A stretch of DNA of 64,000 bases from positions 3,587,501-3,651,500 of the forward strand of contig NC_070560.1 of the NCBI RefSeq assembly GCF_026914185.1, in the 5' to 3' direction. Source of the DNA: Puccinia triticina. Taxonomy: Eukaryota > Basidiomycota > Pucciniomycetes > Pucciniales > Pucciniaceae. The translations under genes and the position numbers were made by a program. Positions 20,561 to 36,258 of this stretch are shown piece after piece. Numbering within the stretch: the stretch's first letter is position 1; each line of letters starts with the position of its first letter. A model generated the notes under the pieces. The model saw nothing but the letters and a program-made list of their open reading frames with translations. It made no database searches and was not told the DNA's origin.

Positions 20561-21429
20561 TGTGGTGCTCCATTCCAAACCATAAGTAGTATTTTATTGC
20601 TTTCCTTTTCATATATTCATCATTACATTGCCCATTCCCCCATAACCCTTCACAAATACCTCATTATTATTTCATATTCAGATTCTACGCCAAATTTCAC
20701 CTATAGTCACTCATACATAGTACCCCTTTATCTTCAATGGTTCAATAGTTATAGAGGATATAAGACTTACAGAGACCTTACAATCTTCATTAGTTACAAT
20801 ACTCATTTCATTAGTAACTTGCTTGAATCATTACATCACATTCTTTTCACAGATATTTTCTCACATACTAAACCCTTTACATACATTACTCATTATGTAC
20901 TATGCCTATTGTACACATTACATCATTGGATCTGTGCTTACCCCTTTCAGTAGTGCTCATCATTACAAGCTGTTACTATGTTCACATCACTCTTCCCCAT
21001 TTGTACAACCTTCATTCCCATAGCCAGAACTCCTCATTGTCTGTGCTCATCCTTCCTTCATATAAGAACTGTCCTTCCCCCCTCACTTGTACCTTATGCA
21101 GAATTTATAGAGAATTTTAGATACAGAAATTATAGTGCCCATTCTCATCAACCCATTGCCATTGAACCATCACCAATTGCTTTCCCCCCCTTCAACTATT
21201 ACTCCAACCATCTCACCCTCAGTAGTCAGTAGTCAGCTCATAGTACTAGCTCCTAAGATCAAGTAGAAATCAGCCACACCTTTTCTTTCTTTTTCTTAGT
21301 GTTACTCTCATCCCCTCAGCATTAGTCAGGAAGGCAGCCTCATCAGCACCCTTGCATAGCTTACATTAGTACTAGTGTTGCTATCCATTTCCCTTCCAAG
21401 CTCTATTCTCCCCTTTGAGTAGTTCCACA
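20561..21429 (+). repeat. 5' LTR
   Basis: Begins TGTGGTGCTCCATTCC and ends GAGTAGTTCCACA (TG...CA rule). 869 bp, aligned end to end with the 3' LTR. Confidence 0.93.
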
Positions 21430-21431
21430 AG

Positions 21432-21448
21432 TGGTGTCCCAACAGTGG
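21432..21448 (+). promoter_or_regulatory. Candidate primer-binding site
   Basis: TGGTGTCCCAACAGTGG starts two bases after the 5' LTR. A TGG start fits pairing with the CCA end of a tRNA. The tRNA cannot be named from this sequence alone. Confidence 0.5.
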
Positions 21449-21643
21449 CTTTTCTATACTTCAGATATCTTCAGCCTTAGTAACACTTTTACCATCAGCT
21501 ACATACTACTTCACCTACACTCCTCATACTCCTCCTTTTATAAACCAACTCCCTGCTTTTAGAATCAACTTCAACCAACAGTAACACTATCAGCACCTTC
21601 ATTATCAACCTTCAGATTCAGATTCAACTTACCTACTTCAATC

Positions 21644-24088
21644 ATGTCTGCCCAAGGATCTCCCAACAACAATGTTGCCCCCAGTCTTTACCCTCCAGTG
21701 GATCCTTCCAGTACTGCTGCAGTTCAGGACTCCACCACTTCCAATGCTGGTCAGACTCAGGTTCCTCCCACTGGTCCAGGTCACCAACCTTCTTCTACTG
21801 GTCCAGGTCCTCAGGCTCCTTCCAATGCTCCAGATCCACAGGGTTCTTCTATTCCACAGGCCAACTCCAGTTCTTGCAGACCTCCTCCTAGACCTCAGAC
21901 TTCCAGTGCTCCTAGATTCACAGGATACAGGGATACCAATCAGCCATCAGATGATTCAGAGGATTTAAATGTTCCACCACTCCGCTTTCCCAGATTCCAG
22001 TGCCAAAGGGATCATTCAACTCACTCTACCAGGTTCAACACCCACTTCTTGAACAGAGAACCAGCCATGCCAAGGTACCAGGATCCAGTCAGCAGAGGAG
22101 TCAAGATTAAACCCATGGACAAGGAGCTCTTCTTTGATGGAACCAACATGCCTGTAGAGAAGTTTATTAGAAGGTATGAAAGTGCTGGAAGAGATGATGG
22201 TGCTAACTCTAAGGAACTGGCTGGACAAATCATTGCTTTTATCAAAGGATTGGACCTAAAGGATGAAGTGGAAGACATGTCAGGCCATGAAAACTTGGAT
22301 TGGGAAACCTTGAAGAAACAGCTACTCACCAGGTTTGGAACTTCTCAGCCTTTGGTCAGATACACCAGGGAGGATCTCAGGAAACTAGTCTACAAATCTG
22401 CTCAGGTTGGAGGAATCAGCACTTTGGAAACCTTCAACACATTCAGAAACAGGTTTGAAACCATCACTCACTATTTGGTAAGAATGGGGTATAGTACCAG
22501 CTTGGAGGAATTCAGACATCTTCTCTTGGAAACTCTCCACAAGGATTTGGACCAAAGGGTTACTAGGAACCTGATGAGGGACAATCAAATGCTAGCCTCA
22601 AAGGATGGAGGTGATATCTCGCCAGACACTGAAACTCTTCTTACCTACATTCACCAGGAGGTTTATTCAAGATCAGTGGTCAACAGAAGGACTGAATGGA
22701 GGGCAGAAGAGAAATCCACTTTGGACAACTTACTGGGTACCTCCAAACCTACACCTGCTACTCATGGAACTGCTCCTACTGCTTCTACTTCTCTGGACAA
22801 ACAAGTGGAACTCCTTACTAAACAGTTTGCATCCCTCACTTCTGGAAAAGGACTTCCTCCCCACATGGACAAACCTGCTAGGACCTGGCCATTCAAATGC
22901 TATTATTGTCATCAGGAAACCCATGGAACCAACAGCTGCTCTCAACTTGCCCAGGACATGTCTAGTGGTGCTGTTATCAGGGATGGAAAGGATTACAAGC
23001 TTCCAGACAAATCAGTTATTCCATGGATTCCAAGCAGACCAATCAGAACCCCAGTGGAGGAGTACTCTAAAACTAAACTCACATCTTCTTTTGGCCAACT
23101 AGAGGAGGACCCAGCCTATTATCAATCCCACAGTTATGAAGCAGACCTTGGAAAGAGGACCAGAAACAACTCTAAAGATCAGGATGAAGAGGAACCAGCC
23201 AAGTCAGACAAAAGAACCAGAAAGGAAAAACAGGACCTAATGGACATGGATACAGAGGACTTACTTCACATGGCCCAGCCCCCCACTCCTAGTGCTTCCA
23301 AAACTCCTGCTTCTAAAGGCTCCCCTCAAGTCAGGTTCCAGGATAAGGACAAGGATTCAACCACTACACCTAAGGACAAACCAGTTAAGAAGACCTATTT
23401 GGAAAAGACTTTGGCCAAGGAATACCCAGGAATTGAAGAAGAAGTGGCTAGTAGGATGTTGACTGCAGGAAAGATGGAGTTGGCCTTTGGAGAAATCTTT
23501 GCTATATCACCAGGAGTTACTGACTGTATCAGGAAGAAGATAACCAACAGAAGGGTCCCATTGGATGGTGTCAAATCAGCAAACTTCACAGACATGGAGG
23601 ATGAAGAAGAACCAGCACAGGAGCCACCCACTACTCACTACTCCTGCCCCCTTGGATACATCACCATCACTATTGGAGGAGAGAAACATCAAGCACTCTT
23701 GGATACTGGCTCTATGGTCAACATTATTCCTGAAACTCTTGCACACAAACTTGGATTGGTACTCACTGCTAAATCTATGAAGCTCAAAGGGATTGGAGGC
23801 CACCTTACTGATATTCCTGGGATTGCTGAAGATGTGGAGGTAACCATTGGGAAAGTAGTCAGGACTGTTCATTTCTGGGTAGCCAAAGGACCAGTTCAGA
23901 TGATTATTGGAAAGCCTTTCTTGATGGATGTCTCAGCCAACATCAACTATAATGGAGCCAGAGGAGAAGCACTTTCAATCATGGATTTAGCTGGTCAGAC
24001 TTTCTTGGTTCCAATCATTCTCCCTAGCAATCAGAAGTGGGAAACCAGCATACCTTCCAATTCTGGTCTGGTAAATTTTTTAGATTGA
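21644..24088 (+). CDS. Ty3 gag-protease polyprotein, 814 residues
   Basis: Structural and protease polyprotein that would build the virus-like particle. Residues 1-120 are rich in Pro, Ser and Thr. A helical retrotransposon-gag region spans about 150-340 (LFFDGTNMPVEKFIRRYE, then WETLKKQLLTRFG). A CCHC zinc knuckle, CYYCHQETHGTNSC, lies at 419-432. An acidic, Lys-rich linker follows, then a retropepsin-like aspartic protease with LLDTGSMVN (Asp at 687). The ATG at 21,644 is the first in this long frame and follows 214 bp of leader. No internal break. The protease sits in the gag frame, and pol follows in the -1 frame with a 52-base overlap and a slippery heptamer. Confidence 0.92.
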   Translation: MSAQGSPNNNVAPSLYPPVDPSSTAAVQDSTTSNAGQTQVPPTGPGHQPSSTGPGPQAPSNAPDPQGSSIPQANSSSCRPPPRPQTSSAPRFTGYRDTNQPSDDSEDLNVPPLRFPRFQCQRDHSTHSTRFNTHFLNREPAMPRYQDPVSRGVKIKPMDKELFFDGTNMPVEKFIRRYESAGRDDGANSKELAGQIIAFIKGLDLKDEVEDMSGHENLDWETLKKQLLTRFGTSQPLVRYTREDLRKLVYKSAQVGGISTLETFNTFRNRFETITHYLVRMGYSTSLEEFRHLLLETLHKDLDQRVTRNLMRDNQMLASKDGGDISPDTETLLTYIHQEVYSRSVVNRRTEWRAEEKSTLDNLLGTSKPTPATHGTAPTASTSLDKQVELLTKQFASLTSGKGLPPHMDKPARTWPFKCYYCHQETHGTNSCSQLAQDMSSGAVIRDGKDYKLPDKSVIPWIPSRPIRTPVEEYSKTKLTSSFGQLEEDPAYYQSHSYEADLGKRTRNNSKDQDEEEPAKSDKRTRKEKQDLMDMDTEDLLHMAQPPTPSASKTPASKGSPQVRFQDKDKDSTTTPKDKPVKKTYLEKTLAKEYPGIEEEVASRMLTAGKMELAFGEIFAISPGVTDCIRKKITNRRVPLDGVKSANFTDMEDEEEPAQEPPTTHYSCPLGYITITIGGEKHQALLDTGSMVNIIPETLAHKLGLVLTAKSMKLKGIGGHLTDIPGIAEDVEVTIGKVVRTVHFWVAKGPVQMIIGKPFLMDVSANINYNGARGEALSIMDLAGQTFLVPIILPSNQKWETSIPSNSGLVNFLD

Positions 24089-25335
24089 GACCAGGTTTTC
24101 AGTTCCCCTCTCTTACAACTGCAACCCTGGAAAACAACCAAGAGCAACAAACTGTAGTCACTCATTCAGCAAAATATAAATCAACTCTAAAAAAAATAAA
24201 ACCAGTAAACCAACCAATGCCATTATCTTTCAACCCTCCATTATCAAGGCCACCACTCTCCAGAGATCCTTACCTCACTCCTTTAAACCCTTTTCCTCCA
24301 CCATTCACTCCTACCTCCAAGATTACTCAAGAAAGGCTGGACCTCATCAACTTTGGACCTCCTGGATGGCTCTCTCCTCAGGAATATCTCCTGCTGGTAT
24401 GGGTAATTGTGATTAGACAAGGTGCTTTGGCTTTTGTAGAAACAGAAAGAGGCCTTCTTAAACACACCTATGGACAACCTTATATCATTCCAGTCATTCC
24501 CCATGAACCTTGGCAACAGAAACCAATTCCAATCCCTGCACCCATCAAAGATCAGGTTATAGAATTGGTAAGGGAAAGACTCAGCACTGGCCTCTATGAA
24601 AAATCCTTTTCCAGTTATTCCAGCCCTATATTTTGTGTAAAGAAGCAGGATGGTAAGCTTAGAATTGTACATGACCTTCAGAAACTCAACAAAGTCACCA
24701 TTAAAGACGCTGGACTACCACCAAAGACAGAGGAACTCATTGAATCATTCACTGGAAGGGCTTGCTATGGACTAGGTGATATTATGGAAGGATATGATGA
24801 AAGAGAATTAGCTCCAGAATCCAGACCTTTGACCACCTTTGAAACACCTCTTGGAAGATTTCAACTCACCAGATTGCCCCAAGGAGCCACCAATTCAGTT
24901 GCAGTTTACCAGGCCCAAATGATGTGGATACTCCAGGATGAATTACCTCAACATATGGGAATCTTTGTGGATGATGGAGGTATAAAAGGACCAACCTCTG
25001 ACTACAATGAAGAAAATCTAAAGGACAACCCCCAGATCAGAAGATTTATCTATGAATATGCCATTACTCTGGAGAGGATACTTTTCAGGATTGAAGAAGC
25101 TGGACTCACTATCTCTGGGAAGAAATTTGCTTGCTGTGTACCTGCTCTGGATCTGGTTGGTCATGTGGTTTGTAAAGAAGGAAGAAGGATATCCATCAAG
25201 AAGCTCAACAAAATTGAAACCTGGCCAACTCCCACCACTCCTTCAGATGTCAGGGGATTTCTAGGTATCTGTGTATATGTTAGAATGTTTATTGAAAATT
25301 ACTCAGCCATCACTGCTCCGCCAGGATGCCTTTGA
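24037..25335 (+). CDS. Ty3 reverse transcriptase (pol, first part)
   Basis: Copies element RNA into DNA. The frame overlaps the end of gag by 52 bases. Motifs in order: PIFCVKKQDGKLRIVHDL, the catalytic Asp in LGDIMEG (about residue 248 of this frame), LTRLPQGATNS, and FVDD for the YxDD box (Asp 312-313), then GKKFACCVPALDLVGHVV. All three catalytic Asp are present. The frame ends at 25,335, just after SAITAP, where related elements have about 15-25 more residues before the RNase H linker. A small deletion probably removed them and shifted the frame. Translation is expected by frameshifting from gag. Confidence 0.88.
   Translation: MGNQHTFQFWSGKFFRLRPGFQFPSLTTATLENNQEQQTVVTHSAKYKSTLKKIKPVNQPMPLSFNPPLSRPPLSRDPYLTPLNPFPPPFTPTSKITQERLDLINFGPPGWLSPQEYLLLVWVIVIRQGALAFVETERGLLKHTYGQPYIIPVIPHEPWQQKPIPIPAPIKDQVIELVRERLSTGLYEKSFSSYSSPIFCVKKQDGKLRIVHDLQKLNKVTIKDAGLPPKTEELIESFTGRACYGLGDIMEGYDERELAPESRPLTTFETPLGRFQLTRLPQGATNSVAVYQAQMMWILQDELPQHMGIFVDDGGIKGPTSDYNEENLKDNPQIRRFIYEYAITLERILFRIEEAGLTISGKKFACCVPALDLVGHVVCKEGRRISIKKLNKIETWPTPTTPSDVRGFLGICVYVRMFIENYSAITAPPGCL
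24076..24082 (+). promoter_or_regulatory. Candidate -1 ribosomal frameshift site, T TTT TTA
   Basis: In the gag frame the codons AAT TTT TTA GAT TGA give the heptamer T-TTT-TTA six bases before the gag stop. This is the X-XXY-YYZ type used by lentiviral gag-pol. A-AAT-TTT, another permitted heptamer, overlaps it at 24,073-24,079. A -1 slip enters the open pol frame directly. A downstream stimulatory structure was not evaluated. Confidence 0.6.
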
Positions 25336-26737
25336 AGACCTCAAGAGGATTGTTGGAACTGACATCACCCTGAAGAAGTTGGACTATGGACCTAATGCTG
25401 GCTTAATCAAACTCTCAGTGGACTCTAGTGTTATTGCTGCAGGGGCTGTACTCACTCAACAGGATTCTGATGGACTGGATAGGCCTGTGTTATATGAGTC
25501 AGTAGTCTTTTCACCCAGGGAATCAAAGTACTCAAAATCCAAATTAGAACTCTGTGGTGTTGCCAAGATCCTCAAGAAACTTCAAACCAAACTCTGGGGC
25601 CAACATTTTCAGCTTAGAGTGGATGCCCAGTGCCTTATTGGAATGATCAACAACCCCTCTCTTCCCAATGCCCCTATGAACAGATGGATTGGATTTATTC
25701 AGTTATTCTCCTATGACCTTGTTCACACTCCTGGAAAAACTTTCACCTTACCTGATGGACTCTCCAGAAGACCTCCTGATTCTGATGAGGAAGACTGCCC
25801 TAGTTTTGATGAAGATGAGACCTGGATCAAGCCTCACCCTGGATTTGGAACTAAACACTCTTCTTTTGGCCTGCTTCTGGGGACATCAGCTCAGTTGGGG
25901 GAGGGGGTAAGTAACTTGCAGCAAGGAATTTGGAAGCACCTCCAGGAATACCTTTCAACCATGAACAAACCTCCAGGATGCAGCAGCCTGGAATTCAAGC
26001 AAATTTTGCACAAATCAGCCAACTTTTTCCTTTCCAATGGAGTCTTGCACAGGATCAACAAACCATTCTCTCAGATAGTAGTCACCTCTCCTTCAGCTCA
26101 GAATTCCATCCTTAATTCCCTTCATGAATCCTTAGGCCACAGAGGTATTGTTGAAACCTACAGAAGAATTAAACTCAGATTTTGGTGGCCAGGTCTCAAG
26201 AGAGGTGTTACCAAGTGGGTCCAGTCTTGTGAAGCTTGCCAGAAGAGGAGTTCAAAATTGCCAATGGAACCCAAGAAACCTACAGGAGCAGCAACCATCT
26301 TTGGAAGAGTCAGTTTGGATACAGTTCACATCAAAGCTGGCAAATGGAAATACCTGGTAATTGCAAGAGATGACCTTTCTGGATGGGTAGAGGCAGTTGG
26401 ACTAGAAAAGATTCAGGCAAAGAAAATCTCTCAGTGGTTCTTGGACAACTGGATCTACAGATATGGAGCCCCTTGGTCAGTCACAGTGGATGGAGGCTCT
26501 GAATTTGGACAACAATTTCAAAAATCCCTTCTGGAATCTGGAATCAAAATCAAAGTCACCACTCCTTATTATCCTGAAGCAAATGGTATGGTAGAAAGAG
26601 GACATCAGGCAATTAAGGATACCTTGGTCAAGCTCTGTGGAAAGGAAGGCAAGAAATGGAGGAATTATTTACCTTTGGTTTTATTTGCAGACAGAATTTC
26701 CACCAAAAGATCAACTGGATACTCACCTTATGAATAG
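25336..26737 (+). CDS. Ty3 RNase H and integrase (pol, second part, out of frame)
   Basis: Continues pol in another frame, open from 25,271. It begins RQDAFEDLKRIVG, then RNase H: KLSVDSSVIAAGAVLTQ, KSKLELCGVAKIL and QLRVDAQ. Integrase follows: an HHCC zinc domain (His 285, His 290, Cys 320, Cys 323, counted from 25,271) and a catalytic triad with Asp in SLDTVHI (about 350), Asp in TVDGGSEF (about 407) and Glu in GMVERGHQ (about 442). The frame stops at a TAG at 26,735-26,737, in mid-integrase after GYSPYE, while homology goes on in a different frame. The catalytic core is whole but the chain is interrupted at both ends. Confidence 0.85.
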
Positions 26738-27155
26738 TTCTTGGACAGCCCCCATCTTACCCATTGACCTAGAATTGGAAACCTTCTTTGGAGTGGATTG
26801 GTCAAAGGTAGAATCAACTCAGGATCTTTTATTGGCTAGGACTCAGCAGCTTGAAAACAGGGATACCATCTTGCAGCAAGCACACCAGCAGCTTATGGAT
26901 TCCAGGAAGAACTCTGTGGACTATTGGAACAAAAAGAAAACATCAAGGCAGCCACTAAAGAAAGGTCAATTAGTAGTAGTGTATAATAAATCTTTGGACT
27001 CTCAGTTTGGCAAGCTCTTTGAAAATAAATGGAATGGCCCTTACAGAATCAAGGCTCAAAACCCAGGAGGATCTTATATCTTGGAAGAATTGGATGGCAC
27101 AGAATTAGCCAGAAGGTTTGCTGCAACCCATGTCAAGGAATACCACTCCAGGTAA
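26738..27155 (+). pseudogene. Integrase C-terminal part, separated by a stop and frameshift
   Basis: From APILPIDLELETFFGVDW the integrase tail continues in a new frame, with a coiled Gln-rich stretch and a GPY/F-type module (KNGQ-like LVVVYNKSLDSQFGK, then WNGPYRI and ATHVKEYHSR). It ends at a natural stop at 27,153-27,155. The junction with the upstream frame carries a TAG and about one base missing. Confidence 0.75.
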
Positions 27156-27335
27156 AAATAATAAATAAGGAATAATCAATTCATTTCTCTTCTCTTTTCT
27201 CTTTCTTATCTTCTTACACAATAACATAAAAACAAAATAAAAATCAAATCTATAAACAACCCAGAAATAAATCAATATAAATCAGCCTCAAACACTCTCA
27301 AATAAAATAACTAAATATAAAATCAAAAAGCTCAC

Positions 27336-28113
27336 CTCTTCTTCTTTTATCACTACATCACCCTCTTCCATTTTACTTTCCTCCTTCTCCTTCTCCTTTT
27401 CTTTTCCCTTCTCCTTATCTAAAAAAATAAAAAATCAAAAGACATAAAAAAAAAAGAAAATTAAAAGCTAAAAAGTCCTCAATAAAGAATAAAAATAGAA
27501 TAGAACTTACCCTCAGCTCTTATCCTCTCTATTTCTGCTTCTACCCTCCAACCATCTTCTTCCTCTTCCACTTGGTCCCTCACTCTTAACAACTCCAGGG
27601 CATTCCTCTCCTCAGTTTCCGCTACAATGGCATCTATTATAGAATGAGTATCCATCTAACAATCAAAACAGAAGCGGGGATTAAAGTATTAGTATTATAG
27701 TCAACTTTCTTCTTCTATTTTTCTTTCTGTCATATACATACAGAATCCACTTGACATACATGTGCAAAGGCGTCGTGGAATCGGCTGTATAACCTGAGAC
27801 GGGTGTTTCGTGCCACTAGCGGGTCGTCGAGGTCCTCACGAGTGAAGGCAAGGAGTCCCTGCTGGATATAATGACAAAGAGCATCCACTTCTTCTGGTTT
27901 GAAGCTATCCCTTGTAAAAGCATTGTACGCGGGAACGTTGTTAACAAACAAGTGCGCTCGTCGGATAGAAAACGGGAATTCATGCGCAGGTCTAATAACG
28001 GCTTCTTTGTCGAGCTGCAAAGAGGATATGGACGTGTTGGACGGATAATCTTTTGAGTTTTCAGTGTTATCTTTTGGCGACGATGGCGTGGATATAGCGC
28101 TGGATGAAATCAT
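27336..28113 (-). CDS. Antisense spliced gene inside the retrotransposon
   Basis: Unrecognised protein encoded opposite to gag-pol, between pol and the 3' LTR. Exon 1 is 28,113-27,742 (124 codons, ATG first in frame), exon 2 27,655-27,511, exon 3 27,418-27,336. The introns 27,656-27,741 (86 bp, GTATGT...TTAG) and 27,419-27,510 (92 bp, GTAAGT...TTAG) keep the frame exactly across both joins (phase 0, then phase 1). The first part is Ser/Pro-rich. The middle is globular-looking (PFSIRRAHLFVNNVPAYNAF, then SFKPEEVDALCHYIQQGL). The last exons are strongly charged, Glu/Lys-rich and probably helical. A third donor (GTGAGC) at 27,335 may lead to a short terminal exon; otherwise the frame stops soon after. 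Total about 200 residues. Exon 1 is more GC-rich than the element around it, so capture from the host is possible. A TATA box and a CRE-like site lie upstream. Confidence 0.7.
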
Positions 28114-28139
28114 TATGGATAACGTAGAGAGATAACGGG

Positions 28140-29150
28140 GTTGTTCCGTTGGCCGACAACCTGGGCCTTATATAAGATACCACTTCTTATTCATATTATG
28201 ACGTCACTATGGACGCCTTCACCGCTCAGAATTGTGTGGCGCGGATTCTCTTCCATTTTCTTAATGTTGACTCTGGTGTTTGACCCAGTTTAATTAATCT
28301 TTGGATCGCTTTTTGGACCATCTACTTGTCATTCATTACCTCAAAAACCGCTTTCAGGCAAAAGGCAGGCTCTAGGAGTCCATCTGGACAGTCCTGTGGC
28401 TGTACCTTCAGCTTATCTTGTTGTGTATTCCCTTATTTTCAACTCTTTTGCGGCGGAAACCGCGGAAAATCATAATGAAGCTTTTAATCGCTCAAATAAT
28501 CAATTGGCCGGCTTCAAAGTTAATATTGATCATTACAGTCTTCATAAATTCAATCTCGCCTTTCATCTGAACTCGGTTTCAGCCCATTCTATCGAGGGAT
28601 TGAAAAGTTATACGCGCTCAAAGTCTCTCTAGTATTTCCACGGTCTCATTTACGGTTGTCATTCAGCGTTCACGGCTGCCCATCGGCCGAATTAATCTTT
28701 AATATTGTTTGATTGTCATCTCAAATTATCCTTCTGGCCTTTCTAATGAACTCAAAATCAGAACTTTTCATCAACGGAAAGCCAAGTTATACCCAAAAAC
28801 ATATTACCTTATATTTACGCGGTGTTACTACTACGCGCGCCCGCGGATTTCGCTTGGATCTTTAATTGGCCCTACATAACTGATACTCAACCCTTAAAAA
28901 TAACCAGTATATAACATTTTAATCTTCAGAATCGGCTCTTTCGAATGAACTGGGTTTGGAGGATTTTCATTGAGCCGTTCCAAAGATACAGGTCGACCAT
29001 TTCTTTCCTTTTTTTTTGGCGTTCCGCACGCGCGCCTCCCGCATGGAGCCCCCGCTCAGACATCAGGACCCCTCTTTTGACAGCACACGCGCACTGACAC
29101 AGGTTCCATTCCTTGTTTGGACAAAAAAAAAAAATTAAGGCTTTTTCGTC
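28140..29150. other. Non-coding 3' region of the retrotransposon with diverged repeats
   Basis: About 1 kb without a convincing ORF. A block of roughly 65 bp, with a pattern like CTTTCNNATGAACT-(10-20)-TTTTCAT, appears in three diverged copies near 28,560, 28,740 and 28,940. Around 29,020-29,100 there is a GC-rich stretch with GCACGCGCGC. Confidence 0.4.
28167..28206 (-). promoter_or_regulatory. Promoter-like sequence of the antisense gene: TATA box and CRE
   Basis: CTTATATAAG (28,167-28,176) lies about 55 bases upstream of the antisense ATG. The palindromic ATF/CREB-type site TGACGTCA (28,199-28,206) lies about 86 bases upstream. Both are palindromes, so orientation is taken from the gene. 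Confidence 0.55.
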
Positions 29151-29403
29151 AAAATGGTGAATTCCAAAGTGCCCAGTACTGGGAGGAAGGAGGAATCATT
29201 CATACTTTCCACATTATGGATCCATCCATCCATTCATTTAATCATCATCATCCTGAATAATCCCTTCTTGAAAAAAATTATCATCCACTCATTCCCTAAA
29301 CACCATTTATCAATCATTCTTTCCATCATCCACCAATCATTCTCCGGCATCATCATCATCATCATCAATCAATTATTCTTTCCAACCATCCTTCTCAATC
29401 ATT

Positions 29404-29694
29404 ATGGTCAGTTTACCAATGGATCCAACTCCTGCAAATCAAACCTCTTCAATCACTCCCAAACAGAAGAATTATCAGTGTTTATATTGCTTTCAGAAGG
29501 GTCACACCATTACTAGGTGCCATTTAGTTACTTATGATAAACAGAAAGGTTTAGTTAGACATATTGGTAAAGCAGGCATATGGCTTCCAGATAATTCCTA
29601 CATCCCTTTAGATTTTTCTAGGTCTGTTAAAAGCTTAGTTGAACTTCTGGTAGCTGCTGGGACACTTTCAGAAACCACCCAATTGGATCAGTAA
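29404..29694 (+). CDS. Free-standing zinc-knuckle protein (nucleocapsid-like), 96 residues
   Basis: Small basic protein with a CCHC knuckle, CLYCFQKGHTITRC, at about residues 26-39, likely to bind nucleic acid. The part after the knuckle (KGLVRHIGKAGIWLPDNSYI, then a Pro and RSVKSLVE) parallels the part after the knuckle in gag (a Gly-x-Val-x-Arg run, LPDKSVIPW, RPIRTPVE). It is therefore probably a duplicated or recruited gag nucleocapsid segment. It starts at ATG 29,404 after a long CATCAT-rich leader and ends at a natural stop before the polypurine tract. No break. Role unknown; RNA packaging or chaperone activity is inference. Confidence 0.7.
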   Translation: MVSLPMDPTPANQTSSITPKQKNYQCLYCFQKGHTITRCHLVTYDKQKGLVRHIGKAGIWLPDNSYIPLDFSRSVKSLVELLVAAGTLSETTQLDQ

Positions 29695-30289
29695 CATTCT
29701 CTGGACAGCTTATCAACCTCTCTGGACTTCAAATTCTCTTCACAAGAACTCTACATCATATACTCAGATACTCAGAAATTCAGTCATTCAAACTCCAAAT
29801 CATTCACAACCTTCAGAAACTACAATTATCAACCCCATCATTCATCATCATTGCATTGCATTCTTCCTTGGTCTCATTGTCAGGCAGGAAAATTATTGTA
29901 TTCTTCAGAGTGGCAATTAGTCTAATATGTGTCTGTCTCAAGGATATTGCCTTCAGCAGAGTTAGATCTTCTTAAACATTCACCCCTCATTGATAATTGG
30001 ACCTTCTGTTGGATACTGGACTCTTTGGATTGGATACTGGACTATGGATATTCTGGATACATAGGACTATTGGACTTTGGATTGGACTTGGATACCTTGG
30101 ACTCAGATATACTGGACTCTTTCTCCTTGGCTTTGGACACTGGACTCTGGATTTGGACTGCTACTCAGGACTTTGGATTTCACCCTTTGGAGGAATAACA
30201 CTGGACTTTGGACCTTGGACTCTTGGACTCAACATTCTTCAACTCTTTCTGGATCACCCTTCTCTTTGGTGCATTGCCTGGGGACAGAC

Positions 30290-30306
30290 AATAAGTTGGG
30301 GGAGGA
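30290..30306 (+). promoter_or_regulatory. Polypurine tract
   Basis: AATAAGTTGGGGGAGGA immediately precedes the 3' LTR start, the expected priming site for plus-strand DNA. Confidence 0.75.
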
Positions 30307-31175
30307 TGTGGTGCTCCATTCCAAACCATAAGTAGTATTTTATTGCTTTCCTTTTCATATATTCATCATTACATTGCCCATTCCCCCATAACCCTTCACA
30401 AATACCTCATTATTATTTCATATTCAGATTCTACGCCAAATTTCACCTATAGTCACTCATACATAGTACCCCTTTATCTTCAATGGTTCAATAGTTATAG
30501 AGGATATAAGACTTACAGAGACCTTACAATCTTCATTAGTTACAATACTCATTTCATTAGTAACTTGCTTGAATCATTACATCACATTCTTTTCACAGAT
30601 ATTTTCTCACATACTAAACCCTTTACATACATTACTCATTATGTACTATGCCTATTGTACACATTACATCATTGGATCTGTGCTTACCCCTTTCAGTAGT
30701 GCTCATCATTACAAGCTGTTACTATGTTCACATCACTCTTCCCCATTTGTACAACCTTCATTCCCATAGCCAGAACTCCTGATTGTCTGTGCTCATCCTT
30801 CCTTCATATAAGAACTGTCCTTCCCCCCTCACTTGTACCTTATGCAGAATTTATAGAGAATTTTAGATACAGAAATTATAGTGCCCATTCTCAAAAACCC
30901 ATTGCCATTGAACCATCACCGATTGCTTTCCCCCCCTTCAACCATTACTCCAACCCTCTCACCCTCAGTAGTCAGTAGTCAGCTCATAGTACTAGCTCCT
31001 AAGATCAAGTAGAAATCAGCCACACCTTTTCTTTCTTTTTCTTAGTGTTACTCTCATCCCCTCAGCATAATTCAGGAAGGCAGCCTCATCAGCACCCTTG
31101 CATAGCTTACATTAGTACTAGTGTTGCTATCCATTTCCCTTCCAAGCTCTATTCTCCCCTTTGAGTAGTTCCACA
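30307..31175 (+). repeat. 3' LTR
   Basis: 869 bp, begins TGTGGTGCTCC, ends GAGTAGTTCCACA. Differs from the 5' LTR at about eight positions, mostly in its last third. Confidence 0.93.
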
Positions 31176-31560
31176 GCGGATAGCACTAAGAGAGGCGACA
31201 TAGATTTCAGAGGAGCCTTTTGTTGGTAGTGGGAAATCACTGATTGCTAACAGAAATCCCCATTGGTGGTAGTGTACATCCGCTGCGCTACGCTCAACTA
31301 ACTACTGAAAGTACTTTGTGCCTCTGGCACACTGAATAGTGCCCCGTCACTCTGAATAGTGTTGATCTGCTGCGCTACGCTAAACTAACTACTGAAAGTA
31401 GTTTGTGCCTCTGGCACACTGAATAGTGCCCCTGCACTCTGAATAGTGCCCCAGCACTCTGAATAGTGCCCTGGAACTCCAAATAGTGCCTCTGGCACTC
31501 TGCATAGTGCCCTGGCACTCTGACTAGTGCCTTTGGCACTCTGCATAGTGCCCTGGCACT
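31176..31560. repeat. TAGCG-type flank and seed of the satellite
   Basis: A roughly 120-bp block with CTGCGCTACGCT, ACTAACTACTGAAAGTA and TGTGCCTCTGGCAC occurs twice (31,270-31,350 and 31,365-31,440). It leads into irregular AGTGCC...GGCACT units, which look like the source of the array that follows. Confidence 0.6.
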
Positions 31561-34500
31561 CTGAATAGTGCCTCTGGGACTATGAATAGTGCCTCTGGGA
31601 CTATGAACAGTGCCTCTGGGACTATGAATAGTGCCTCTGGGACTATGAGTAGTGCCTCTGGGACTATGAATAGTGCCTCTGGGACTATGAATAGTGCCTC
31701 TGGGACTATGAGTAGTGCCTCTGGGACTATGAATAGTGCCTCTGGGACTATGAGTAGTGCCTCTGGCACTATGAATAGTGCCTCTGGGACTATGAATAGT
31801 GCCCTGGCACTCTTGAATAGTGCCTCTGGCACTATGAATAGTGCTCCGGCACTCTTGATTAGTGCCTCTGGCACTATGAATAGTGCCCCGGCACTCTTGA
31901 TTAGAGCCTCTGGCACAATGAATAGTGCCCCGGCACTCTTGATTAGTGCCTCTGGCACTATGAATAGTGCCCCGGCACTCTTGATTAGTGCCTCTGGCAC
32001 TATGAATAGTGCCCCGGCACTCTTGATTAGTGCCTCTGGCACTATGAATAGTGCCCCGGCACTCTTGATTAGTGCCTCTGGCACTATGAATAGTGCCTCT
32101 GGCACTATGAATAGTGCCTCTGGCACTATGAATAGTGCCTCTGGCACTATGAATAGTGCCTCTGGCACTATGAATAGTGCCTCTGGCACTATGAATAGTG
32201 CCTCTGGCACTATGAATAGTGCCTCTGGCACTATGAATAGTGCCTCTGGCACTATGAATAGTGCCTCTGGCACTATGAATAGTGCCTCTGGCACTATGAA
32301 TAGTGCCTCTGGCACTATGAATAGTGCCTCTGGCACTATGAATAGTGCCTCTGGCACTATGAATAGTGCCTCTGGCACTATGAATAGTGCCTCTGGCACT
32401 ATGAATAGTGCCTCTGGCACTATGAATAGTGCCTCTGGCACTATGAATAGTGCCTCTGGCACTATGAATAGTGCCTCTGGCACTATGAATAGTGCCTCTG
32501 GCACTATGAATAGTGCCTCTGGCACTATGAATAGTGACCCAGCACTCTTGATTAGTGCCTCTGGCATTATGAATAGTTCCCTGGAACTCTTGAATAGTGC
32601 CTCTGGCACTATGAATAGTGCCTCTGGCACTATGAATAGTGCCTCTGGCACTATGAATAGTGCCTCTGGCACTATGAATAGTGCCTCTGGCACTATGAAT
32701 AGTGCCTCTGGCACTATGAATAGTGCCTCTGGCACTATGAATAGTGCCTCTGGCACTATGAATAGTGACCCAGCACTCTTGATTAGTGCCTCTGGCATTA
32801 TGAATAGTTCCCTGGAACTCTTGAATAGTGCCTCTGGCACTATGAATAGTGCCCTGGCACTCTTGAATAGTGCCTCTGGCACTATGAATAGTGCCCTGGC
32901 ACTCTTGAATAGTGCCTCTGGCACTATGAATAGTGCCCTGGCACTCTTGAATAGTGCCTCTGGCACTATGAATAGTGCCCTGGCACTCTTGAATAGTGCC
33001 TCTGGCACTATGAATAGTGCCTCTGGCACTGTGAATAGTGCCCTGGCACTATGAATAGTGCCCTGGCACTATGAATAGTGCCTCTGGGACTATGAATAGT
33101 GCCCTGGCACTCTTGAATAGTGCCTCTGGCACTATGAATAGTGCTCCGGCACTCTTGATTAGTGCCTCTGGCACTATGAATAGTGCCCCGGCACTCTTGA
33201 TTAGAGCCTCTGGCACTATGAATAGTGCCCCGGCACTCTTGATTAGTGCCTCTGGCACTATGAATAGTGCCCCGGCACTCTTGATTAGTGCCTCTGGCAC
33301 TATGAATAGTGCCCCGGCACTCTTGATTAGTGCCTCTGGCACTATGAATAGTGCCCCGGCACTCTTGATTAGTGCCTCTGGCACTATGAATAGTGCCCCG
33401 GCACTCTTGATTAGTGCCTCTGGCACTATGAATAGTGCCTCTGGCACTATGAATAGTGCCTCTGGCACTATGAATAGTGCCTCTGGGACTATGAATAGTG
33501 CCCTGGCACTCTTGATTAGTGCCTCTGGCACTATGAATAGTGCCCCGGCACTCTTGATTAGAGCCTCTGGCACTATGAATAGTGCCCCGGCACTCTTGAT
33601 TACTGCCTCTGGCACTATGAATAGTGCCCCGGCACTCTTGAATAGTGCCTCTGGCACTATGAATAGTGCTCCGGCACTCTTGATTAGTGCCTCTGGCACT
33701 ATGAATAGTGCCCCGGCACTCTTGATTAGAGCCTCTGGCACTATGAATAGTGCCCCGGCACTCTTGATTAGTGCCTCTGGCACTATGAATAGTGCCCCGG
33801 CACTCTTGATTAGTGCCTCTGGCACTATGAATAGTGCCCCGGCACTCTTGATTAGTGCCTCTGGCACTATGAATAGTGCCCCGGCACTCTTGATTAGTGC
33901 CTCTGGCACTATGAATAGTGCCCCGGCACTCTTGATTAGTGCCTCTGGCACTATGAATAGTGCCCCGGCACTCTTGATTAGTGCCTCTGGCACTATGAAT
34001 AGTGCCTCTGGCACTATGAATAGTGCCTCTGGCACTATGAATAGTGCCTCTGGCACTATGAATAGTGCCTCTGGCACTATGAATAGTGCCTCTGGCACTA
34101 TGAATAGTGCCTCTGGCACTATGAATAGTGCCTCTGGCACTATGAATAGTGCCTCTGGCACTATGAATAGTGCCTCTGGCACTATGAATAGTGCCTCTGG
34201 CACTATGAATAGTGCCTCTGGCACTATGAATAGTGCCTCTGGCACTATGAATAGTGCCTCTGGCACTATGAATAGTGCCTCTGGCACTATGAATAGTGCC
34301 TCTGGCACTATGAATAGTGCCTCTGGCACTATGAATAGTGCCTCTGGCACTATGAATAGTGCCTCTGGCACTATGAATAGTGCCTCTGGCACTATGAATA
34401 GTGCCTCTGGCACTATGAATAGTGCCTCTGGCACTATGAATAGTGACCCAGCACTCTTGATTAGTGCCTCTGGCATTATGAATAGTTCCCTGGAACTCTT

Positions 34501-36258
34501 GAATAGTGCCTCTGGCACTATGAATAGTGCCCTGGCACTCTTGAATAGTGCCTCTGGCACTATGAATAGTGCCCTGGCACTCTTGAATAGTGCCTCTGGC
34601 ACTATGAATAGTGCCCTGGCACTCTTGAATAGTGCCTCTGGCACTATGAATAGTGCCCTGGCACTCTTGAATAGTGCCTCTGGCACTATGAATAGTGCCC
34701 TGGCACTCTTGAATAGTGCCTCTGGCACTATGAATAGTGCCCTGGCACTCTTGATTAGTGCCTCTGGCACTATGAATAGTGCCCTGGCACTCTTGATTAG
34801 TGCCTCTGGCACTATGAATAGTGCCCTGGCACTCTTGATTAGTGCCTCTGGCACTATGAATAGTGCCCTGGCACTCTTGAATAGTGCCTCTGGCACTATG
34901 AATAGTGCCCTGGCACTCTTGAATAGTGCCTCTGGCACTATGAATAGTGCCCTGGCACTCTTGAATAGTGCCTCTGGCACTATGAATAGTGCCCTGGCAC
35001 TCTTGAATAGTGCCTCTGGCACTATGAATAGTGCCCTGGCACTCTTGAATAGCGCCTCTGGCACTATGAATAGTGCCCTGGCACTCTTGAATAGTGCCTC
35101 TGGCACTATGAATAGTGCCTCTGGCACTATGAATAGTGCCTCTGGCACTATGAATAGTGCCTCTGGCACTATGAATAGTGCCTCTGGCACTATGAATAGT
35201 GCCTCTGGCACTATGAATAGTGCCCTGGCACTATGAATAGTGCCCTGGCACTATGAATAGTGCCCTGGCACTATGAATAGTGCCCTGGCACTCTTGAATA
35301 GTGCCTCTGGCACTATGAATAGTGCCTCTGGCACTATGAATAGTGCCCTGGCACTCTTGAATAGTGCCTCTGGCACTATGAATAGTGCCTCTGGCACTAT
35401 GAATAGTGCCCTGGCACTCTTGAATAGTGCCTCTGGCACTATGAATAGTGCCCTGGCACTCTTGAATAGTGCCTCTGGCCCTATGAATAGTGCCCTGGCA
35501 CTCTTGAATAGTGCCTCTGGCACTATGAATAGTGCCCTGGCACTCTTGAATAGTGCCTCTGGCACTATGAATAGTGCCCTGGCACTCTTGAATAGTGCCC
35601 TGGCACTCTTGAATAGTGCCCTGGCACTCTTGAATAGTGCCTCTGGCACTATGAATAGTGCCCTGGCACTCTTGAATAGTGCCCTGGCACTCTTGAATAG
35701 TGCCTCTGGCACTATGGATAGTGCCCCAGCACTCTTGATTAGTGCCTCTGGCACTATGAGTAGTGCCCCGGCACTCTTGATTGGTGCCTCTGGCATTATG
35801 AATAGTTCCCTGGCACTCTTGAATAGTTCCTCTGGCATTATGAATAGTTCCCTGGCACTCTTGAATAGTGTCTCTGGCACTATGAATAGTGCCCTGGCAC
35901 TATTGAATAGTGCCTCTGGCACTATGAAAAGTGCCCCGGCACTCTTGATTAGTGCCTCTGGCACTATGAATAGTGCCCCGGCACTCTTGATTAGTGCCTC
36001 TGGCACTATGAATAGTGCCCCGGCACTCTTGATTAGTGCCTCTGGCATTATGAATAGTTCCCTGGCACTCTTGAATAGTGTCTCTGGCACTATGAATAGT
36101 GCCCCGGCACTCTTGAATAGTGCCTCTGGCACTATGAATAGTGCCCCGGCACTCTTGATTAGTGCCTCTGGCACTATGAATAGTGCCCCGGCACTCTTGA
36201 TTAGTGCCTCTGGCACTATGAATAGTGCCCCGGCACTCTTGAATAGTGCCTCTGGCAA
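31561..36258. repeat. 21-bp dyad satellite, about 220 monomers
   Basis: Head-to-tail 21-bp monomers of two main kinds. One is AGTGCC-TCT-GGCACT plus ATGAAT; the other is AGTGCC-CC/CT-GGCACT plus CTTGATT or CTTGAAT. Every monomer is an inverted repeat with 6-bp arms. The kinds alternate in some blocks and are homogeneous in others, and a marker unit with GACCCAGCACTC occurs at 32,535, 32,765 and 34,445, showing duplication of larger blocks. Because 21 is divisible by three, frames of 340-720 residues are open on both strands (NSASGTM repeats plus, IVPEALF repeats minus). They end where 20-bp monomers occur near 33,045 and 35,230. I regard these ORFs as by-products. Confidence 0.93.

What the first reader, a model, noticed from the sequence alone, without database searches (positions are those of the whole stretch)
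27336..28206. A spliced antisense gene with its own promoter-like sequence inside a Ty3 retrotransposon
Seen: three minus-strand exons joined by two GT-AG introns of 86 and 92 bp keep one frame of about 200 codons, with an ATG first in frame. TATA (about -55) and TGACGTCA (about -86) lie upstream. Exon 1 is more GC-rich than the element. Known: antisense ORFs occur in some plant LTR elements, but introns in genomic LTR-element sequence must be antisense to the element's RNA to survive reverse transcription. That is exactly the situation here. Inference: an accessory gene expressed from the opposite strand, perhaps taken from the host, which could regulate the element or its silencing.
Basis: partly seen in the sequence, partly recalled or inferred. 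Interest (0 to 1): 0.87.

Follow-up and report, generated by a model that had tools for sequence, protein, structure and literature searches.

The report
Spliced antisense gene inside a retrotransposon
A jumping element in a rust fungus carries, on its opposite strand, an intron-containing gene that selection keeps intact in most of about a hundred copies, sits in a sharply bounded island of different DNA composition, and varies and reshuffles far more than the part of the element next to it.

Summary
The minus-strand gene has four exons (28113-27760, 27655-27511, 27418-27336, 27249-27244) and encodes 195 aa, the length and exon-1/2 junction of the Puccinia triticina gene model PTTG_07521. In 37 aligned copies splice sites are nearly invariant, introns vary in length, 15 of 18 exon length changes are in frame, 28 of 37 are open, and pN/pS is 0.22 (four other frames 0.99-1.64, the wobble-sharing one 0.38).

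Of 111 close pol copies, 108 carry the gene antisense, downstream of pol. Two other pol classes carry different antisense genes there (17 of 20; 19 of 19), one probably a distant relative.

New: the element is a CpG desert (5 CpG seen, 304 expected, in 5' LTR-gag-pol) with one CpG-normal island (27771-29147) over the antisense promoter and exon 1. The cassette (about 27.25-29.8 kb) is 3-8 times more divergent than the pol stretch beside it in the same copies, and its parts are reshuffled.

Most likely an element-encoded accessory regulator; function inferred, host origin not supported. Kind: antisense accessory ORFs (Grande, Retand, brtn), in a new variant.

The parts
20561..21429 (+). 5' LTR, 869 bp
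   Evidence: 99.08% identical to 30307-31175, 8 mismatches, no gaps
30307..31175 (+). 3' LTR
   Evidence: D2 repeat
21644..24088 (+). Gag plus aspartic protease ORF (814 aa)
   Evidence: PF13650 6.5e-11; the Gag part is assigned by position and a CCHC-type motif read by eye
24037..27155 (+). pol: reverse transcriptase, RNase H, integrase; spread over three overlapping ORFs in this copy, while open frames of about 1058 codons exist in many other copies
   Evidence: Pfam RVT_1, RT_RNaseH, Integrase_H2C2, rve; open frames listed
27760..28113 (-). antisense gene, exon 1 (118 codons, ATG at 28113)
   Evidence: pN/pS 0.24 in frame; 92 of 107 genome matches covering 100 or more of 118 residues have no stop (counted by hand)
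27656..27759 (-). intron 1 (104 nt; GTATGT...TTAG)
   Evidence: donor GTATGT 37/37, acceptor AG 37/37
27511..27655 (-). antisense gene, exon 2
   Evidence: no length change in 37 copies; pN/pS 0.15
27419..27510 (-). intron 2 (92 nt; GTAAGT...TTAG)
   Evidence: donor GT 36/37, acceptor AG 37/37
27336..27418 (-). antisense gene, exon 3 (Lys/Glu-rich tail)
   Evidence: 14 of 37 copies differ in length, all by multiples of 3
27250..27335 (-). intron 3 (86 nt; GTGAGC...ATAG)
   Evidence: donor GT 34/37; acceptor AG in 32 of the 33 copies whose extracted stretch reaches it (counted by eye)
27244..27249 (-). exon 4: last codon and stop (ATT TGA); several copies lack this stop and read on
   Evidence: matches the ...EEI end of P0001 and P0002
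28168..28177 (-). TATA-like site
   Evidence: a TATAA or ATAAGG-type site in nearly all copies, shifted by small indels
28199..28206 (-). TGACGTCA (CRE-type palindrome)
   Evidence: 29 of 37 copies
28269..28278 (-). CACCAGAGTC, most conserved promoter block
   Evidence: 37 of 37 copies; also upstream of the antisense gene in L046 (81-85% pol class), with a similar distance (63 and 61 bp) to CGTCCATAGT; against 1000 shuffles, two colinear 8-mers in 10, a match of 10 or longer in 72
27771..29147 (.). CpG-normal island inside a CpG-desert element
   Evidence: 78 CpG seen, 81.4 expected in 27337-29300; 5 against 304 in 20561-27336; 3 against 65.5 in 29301-31175; positions
27250..29800 (.). hypervariable, reshuffled cassette (borders approximate)
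   Evidence: divergence profile, mosaic pairs, mutually rejecting trees

Best explanation
A Ty3/gypsy element of a rust fungus (most likely Puccinia triticina) carries between pol and the 3' LTR an antisense transcription unit of its own: a promoter region in a CpG-normal island, four exons, and a 195-aa protein (Ser/Thr-rich N-terminus, predicted helices, long charged C-terminal helix; prediction of low confidence). Shown: the gene is conserved in reading frame and splice sites across copies, travels with this pol lineage, and its region differs from the neighbouring pol in CpG content, divergence and genealogy. Inferred: host RNA polymerase II transcribes it from the island, three introns are removed, and the protein acts in trans as an accessory regulator of the element, most likely on its transcription or silencing. 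The introns persist because they lie backwards in the RNA that is reverse transcribed. Also inferred: cassettes are exchanged by template switching during reverse transcription, and rarer cassette sequences are favoured because host homology-based silencing, fed by sense/antisense RNA pairing over this region, acts on common sequences. That would let synonymous and flanking sequence diverge widely while the protein stays constrained.
For: Splice and frame conservation in 37 copies. pN/pS 0.22 against 0.99, 1.08, 1.55 and 1.64 in four other frames. 108 of 111 pol hits at 93% or more have the gene downstream in antisense; no exon-2 hit lies on the pol strand within 3 kb. Different antisense genes at that place in 17 of 20 and 19 of 19 pol hits of the two other classes. 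Gene model PTTG_07521 with the same junctions, from a gene set guided by RNA-seq. In the same 28 copies: pol pS 0.075, pN 0.009; exon 1 pS 0.42, pN 0.097; exons 2-3 pS 0.18, pN 0.035. Transversion divergence 0.006 in pol against 0.058-0.083 in exon 1, promoter and upstream, so CpG decay is not the cause. Pol and cassette trees reject each other (AU p 1.4e-51 and 1.2e-8). Pairs such as L018/L015 differ by less than 5% from pol through the gene, then by 15-30% from 28300 to 29199. One upstream type (8% linkage) pairs with three exon-1 types. CpG positions in exon 1 and promoter do not change faster than other C/G (ratios 1.12 and 1.02), as expected if unmethylated.
Against: No expression, small-RNA or methylation data for this locus were available. 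The protein matches no known domain and the structure model is poor (mean pLDDT 55), so 'regulator' rests on analogy. In the 81-85% class 13 of the 15 full-length exon-1 matches are 95-100% alike, so hypervariability is not universal. Copies were chosen by cassette similarity to the window, and the profile starts at 25300, so gag and the first part of pol were not compared. The frame that shares the wobble position has ratio 0.38. 9 of 37 copies carry stops or frameshifts.
Confidence: 0.6

Rival explanations
1. The antisense unit acts as RNA: its transcript pairs with the genomic RNA and silences or tunes the element; the protein is incidental.
For: Antisense transcription would make double-stranded RNA; PMC7264820 raises this for plant elements (passages). 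A promoter block is conserved in 37 of 37 copies.
Against: Codon-level constraint, in-frame exon length changes and conserved splice sites point to a translated product.
Confidence: 0.12
2. The gene is a host gene captured by the element.
For: CpG content and GC of exon 1 look like ordinary genic DNA rather than element DNA.
Against: No host homologue seen: 108 of 118 exon-2 hits at E<=0.01 belong to elements, two of the other ten lie in element debris, eight were not inspected. In the protein database only P. triticina hypothetical proteins matched (in one search only the 7984 candidates sharing most words were scored). A sister pol class has what looks like the same gene with the same intron position, so presence in the element is old.
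Confidence: 0.1
3. The protein is a copy-number controller (a self-limiting factor, as plasmid incompatibility systems and yeast Ty1 p22 are recalled to be), and cassettes diversify so that elements stop repressing each other.
For: Many divergent cassettes coexist on near-identical pol: in 28 copies, 20 exon-1/promoter groups at 3% and 8 at 8%, against 2 and 1 pol groups; module reshuffling.
Against: Amino-acid change is constrained (pN/pS 0.22), not accelerated; no Gag similarity (best E 0.31).
Confidence: 0.15
4. The cassette is merely old: divergent 3' modules were recombined onto one recently successful pol, with no present selection for diversity.
For: Mutually incompatible trees and mosaic pairs; divergence low on both sides of the cassette.
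Against: Does not by itself explain why so many modules persist; not excluded by anything here.
Confidence: 0.3

Closest known systems
[quoted passage not shown] TRP28 domain)
   Same: Same position and orientation; present in most copies of some families; own promoter reported for Grande; function unknown, nuclear location in Grande (PMC7264820 and PMC11963269, passages)
   Different: The word intron does not occur in the main text of either paper; no TRP28 match here; CpG island, hypervariability and reshuffling are not in the passages seen
brtn of Boty-like elements in Botrytis cinerea (Zhao et al. 2011, Virology; not read, seen only as a citation in PMC7264820 and in a passage and citation in PMC8365987)
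   Same: Antisense additional gene in a fungal LTR element (title of the cited paper; BcGypsy1 in PMC8365987)
   Different: Its sequence and exon structure were not at hand, so no comparison was made
HTLV-1 HBZ, an antisense retroviral gene
   Same: Antisense gene in a retroelement; nuclear role (passage of PMC11963269); spliced (recalled)
   Different: HTLV antisense promoter lies in the 3' LTR (passage of PMC7264820) and HBZ is a bZIP protein (recalled); here the promoter-like region is internal and no bZIP match was found

Membership tests
Antisense accessory ORF (aORF-3R type) of LTR retrotransposons | ORF between pol and 3' LTR, antisense to gag-pol | tested here: met
Antisense accessory ORF (aORF-3R type) of LTR retrotransposons | present in all or most copies of the family | tested here: met
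   108 of 111 pol hits at 93% or more identity; 150 of 1044 first-look candidates were scored
Antisense accessory ORF (aORF-3R type) of LTR retrotransposons | transcribed from its own promoter | not testable with these tools
   only promoter-like motifs and their conservation
Retand TRP28 antisense proteins | TRP28 domain (PF04195) | tested here: not met
   no such Pfam match for window-type, L046-type or L047-type protein
Botrytis brtn | sequence relation to BRTN | not tested
   sequence not at hand; no Botrytis protein among hits
HBZ-like antisense bZIP factors | bZIP domain | tested here: not met
   no bZIP match at E up to 10 in the four proteins, nor for the window protein at E up to 1
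Transduced host gene | homologous gene outside the element | tested here: inconclusive
   none found, but eight exon-2 hits without a pol hit within 6 kb were not inspected and other rust genomes were not at hand as DNA
Ty3/gypsy retrotransposon (carrier) | LTRs, gag-protease, RT-RNase H-integrase order | tested here: met

The most novel reading that the evidence does not exclude
The antisense unit is a methylation- and small-RNA-facing control cassette: the one CpG-bearing, probably unmethylated stretch in an element that has lost CpG elsewhere, coding a constrained trans-acting protein while its nucleotide sequence is kept diverse and is shuffled between copies by frequency-dependent escape from homology-based silencing.
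Probability: 0.25. Interest if true: 0.88.

Novelty: new variant of a known kind. Interest (0 to 1): 0.72.

Why it matters
Antisense accessory genes of LTR retrotransposons are known, but their function is open. Here is a family of about a hundred copies in one genome with codon-level selection, conserved introns that mark the coding strand, and a module that evolves separately from the pol next to it. That makes questions about silencing, self-limitation and module exchange testable with stranded RNA, small-RNA and methylation data. The CpG desert with one island offers a way to ask how an element coexists with CpG methylation.

Tried and rejected
Host capture: not supported, no non-element homologue seen. 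CpG decay as the cause of the cassette's divergence: rejected, since transversions and non-CpG sites show the same contrast and CpG sites are not hypermutable. A second coding gene in the hypervariable upstream stretch 28150-29200: no frame on either strand below 0.63 in pN/pS per 150-base step, against 0.23 for exon 1. Gag-derived factor: best BLASTP E 0.31 over 11 residues. Known domain or solved relative: none (one MerR hit at E 0.24 and two weak hits to an exon-2 piece, all below cut-off). Rfam: none at gathering scores. Structure: low confidence, not used for a fold search. Relation of the 66-68% class's antisense protein to the window's: none by profile comparison. Relation of the 81-85% class's protein: weak (hhalign P 0.0047, probability 7.5%, 43 ungapped columns), and a control-like comparison of the 81-85% and 66-68% types over an Arg-rich stretch gave a similar P of 0.0091, so the P value alone means little; what speaks for kinship is that the ungapped alignment puts intron 1 at the same residue (118 against 128) and that promoter blocks are shared. 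A first promoter-colinearity test with too narrow an offset found nothing; the widened one gave 10 of 1000 shuffles. A first four-exon script was off by one base and reported 0 of 37 intact; corrected. The tally (106 rows, 14 with stops) omitted one row with a stop; the text uses 107 and 15. Loci L050 and L051 were fetched and only matched against the window.

Full report
SETTING. The window lies in a 122.8 Mb, 18-contig genome. The named protein relatives of the window-type and 81-85%-class antisense genes are all from Puccinia triticina (2 of 2, 6 of 6), so the genome is most likely that rust (inference; 18 chromosomes recalled). The carrier is a Ty3/gypsy element of about 10.6 kb, LTRs 20561-21429 and 30307-31175, 99.08% identical, with gag-protease and RT-RNase H-integrase. 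Its pol is spread over three ORFs in this copy; many other copies have an open frame of about 1058 codons.

THE GENE. On the minus strand between integrase and the 3' LTR lies a four-exon gene: 28113-27760, 27655-27511, 27418-27336, 27249-27244. I fetched 37 loci holding 37 of the 39 other scored matches and aligned them with the window (38 rows). One row (L044) was left out of all counts because its extracted stretch ends before exon 2, leaving 37. L011 and L045 are near-identical units of one tandem array. Donor 1 at 27759 reads GTATGT in 37 of 37; acceptor 1 AG 37 of 37; donor 2 GT 36 of 37; acceptor 2 AG 37 of 37; donor 3 GT 34 of 37. From ATG to the end of exon 3, 28 of 37 are open. Length differences from the window: exon 2 in 0 of 37, exon 3 in 14, all multiples of three, exon 1 in 4, of which 3 break frame; introns 1, 2 and 3 in 33, 36 and 23 of 37, not multiples of three in 19, 25 and 15 (a few extracts stop short of the end of intron 3). 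The public gene model PTTG_07521 (P0001) is 195 aa with the same junction and end; that gene set was guided by RNA-seq, with strand-specific libraries for most samples (PMC5295586, passages). This supports but does not prove splicing in vivo.

SELECTION. Over all pairs of 37 copies, pN/pS in frame is 0.22 for the spliced gene (exon 1 0.24, exon 2 0.15). The other frames give 1.08, 1.55, 0.99, 1.64 and 0.38, the last sharing the wobble position; the upstream control gives 0.69-0.86. Heterozygosity at codon positions 1, 2, 3 is 0.093, 0.064, 0.215. Random mutation leaves 5.9 of 36 copies without stops on average, maximum 11; 27 of those 36 are really open. Genome-wide, 92 of 107 exon-1 matches covering 100 or more of 118 residues have no stop (counted by hand).

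LINKAGE TO THE ELEMENT. With the integrase C-terminus as query, 150 scored hits (of 1044 candidates) fall into three identity classes. Of 111 at 93% or more, 108 have the gene downstream on the opposite strand; of 20 at 81-85% and 19 at 66-68%, none has it by sequence. Yet a member of the second class (L046) has an antisense gene at the same place, whose intron 1 lies in phase 0 just before a Met codon, as here, with shared promoter blocks and a weak profile match that puts the intron at the same residue (a similar P value came up between two types that look unrelated). That gene is found by 17 of the 20 pol hits of its class. A second member, L052, shows the same two exons; in L053 I found no such ORF. 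The third class (L047) has another antisense ORF of 138 aa, beside 19 of 19 pol hits of the class, with one stop among 34 matches, and no profile similarity to the window's protein. Three unnamed proteins 59-67% identical to it lie on contigs of 645-718 bases, origin not known. So an antisense gene at this place is the rule in this pol lineage.

TWO UNEXPECTED PROPERTIES. First, CpG: 5 seen against 304 expected in 20561-27336, 78 against 81 in 27337-29300, 3 against 65 in 29301-31175, the island running from 27771 to 29147. L046 shows the same contrast between its pol end (about 0.4 kb held) and its antisense gene, while the pol end of L047 is not CpG-poor. Within exon 1 and promoter, CpG positions do not change faster than other C/G. 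Puccinia graminis methylates CG in young transposable elements (PMC8444563, passages), so an element nearly without CpG and with one CpG-bearing island is notable; that the island is unmethylated is inference. Second, divergence: among the 28 of 38 copies passing a coverage filter, pol (25400-27150) differs by 0.023, exons 2-3 stretch 0.079, exon 1 0.17, promoter 0.15, 28301-29000 0.20, 29800-30300 0.038, LTR 0.07. 312 of 378 pairs differ by more than 0.15 over 27760-28900, with a mean pol difference of 0.025. Synonymous divergence is 0.42 in exon 1 against 0.075 in pol. Trees from pol and cassette reject each other. Mosaic pairs show one border near 28300; the other lies in 29200-29650, which most pairs do not align over, or, for L015/L016, near 28900. 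One upstream type occurs with three exon-1 types.

MECHANISM. Shown: a conserved antisense coding gene, conserved promoter blocks, separate module history. Inferred: transcription from the island, splicing, translation, and action as an accessory regulator. The reading I favour is that the protein helps the element's expression or evasion of silencing, and that the nucleotide diversity of the cassette is favoured because sense and antisense RNA pair there. A simpler alternative, old modules recombined onto a recent pol without present selection, is not excluded.

COMPARISON. [quoted passage not shown] I saw no report of an intron-bearing antisense gene in a fungal LTR element, of a CpG island of this kind or of such a cassette in the listings or the passages; most subscription papers are not in that library.

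VERDICT.

Noticed in passing
window 29404-29694: Plus-strand ORF with a CCHC-type zinc knuckle (weak Pfam match, below cut-off) like a second Gag tail, between the hypervariable stretch and the 3' LTR; few copy pairs align over 29200-29650.
   Followed up: partly
window 31511-35236: Long array of 21-base units giving open frames on both strands (MNSASGT / FIVPEAL repeats).
   Followed up: no
G000 C13:5463738-5474989: Four tandem copies of the antisense gene region spaced 3462 bp apart, each exon 1 with one TAA stop.
   Followed up: no
L047 (66-68% pol class): A different antisense ORF (138 aa) at the same place in 19 of 19 pol hits of the class, with relatives on short public contigs; two of these (P0007, P0008) share their C-terminal part exactly but differ in the N-terminal part.
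   Followed up: partly
window 20561-27336: Near-total absence of CpG over 5' LTR, gag and pol of an element family with many open copies; the pol end of the 66-68% class (L047, about 0.4 kb) is not CpG-poor.
   Followed up: partly
L048 (C16:3737000-3740800): A decayed, distant relative of the antisense gene (48-55%) near LTR-like fragments, with what looks like another repeat inserted.
   Followed up: partly
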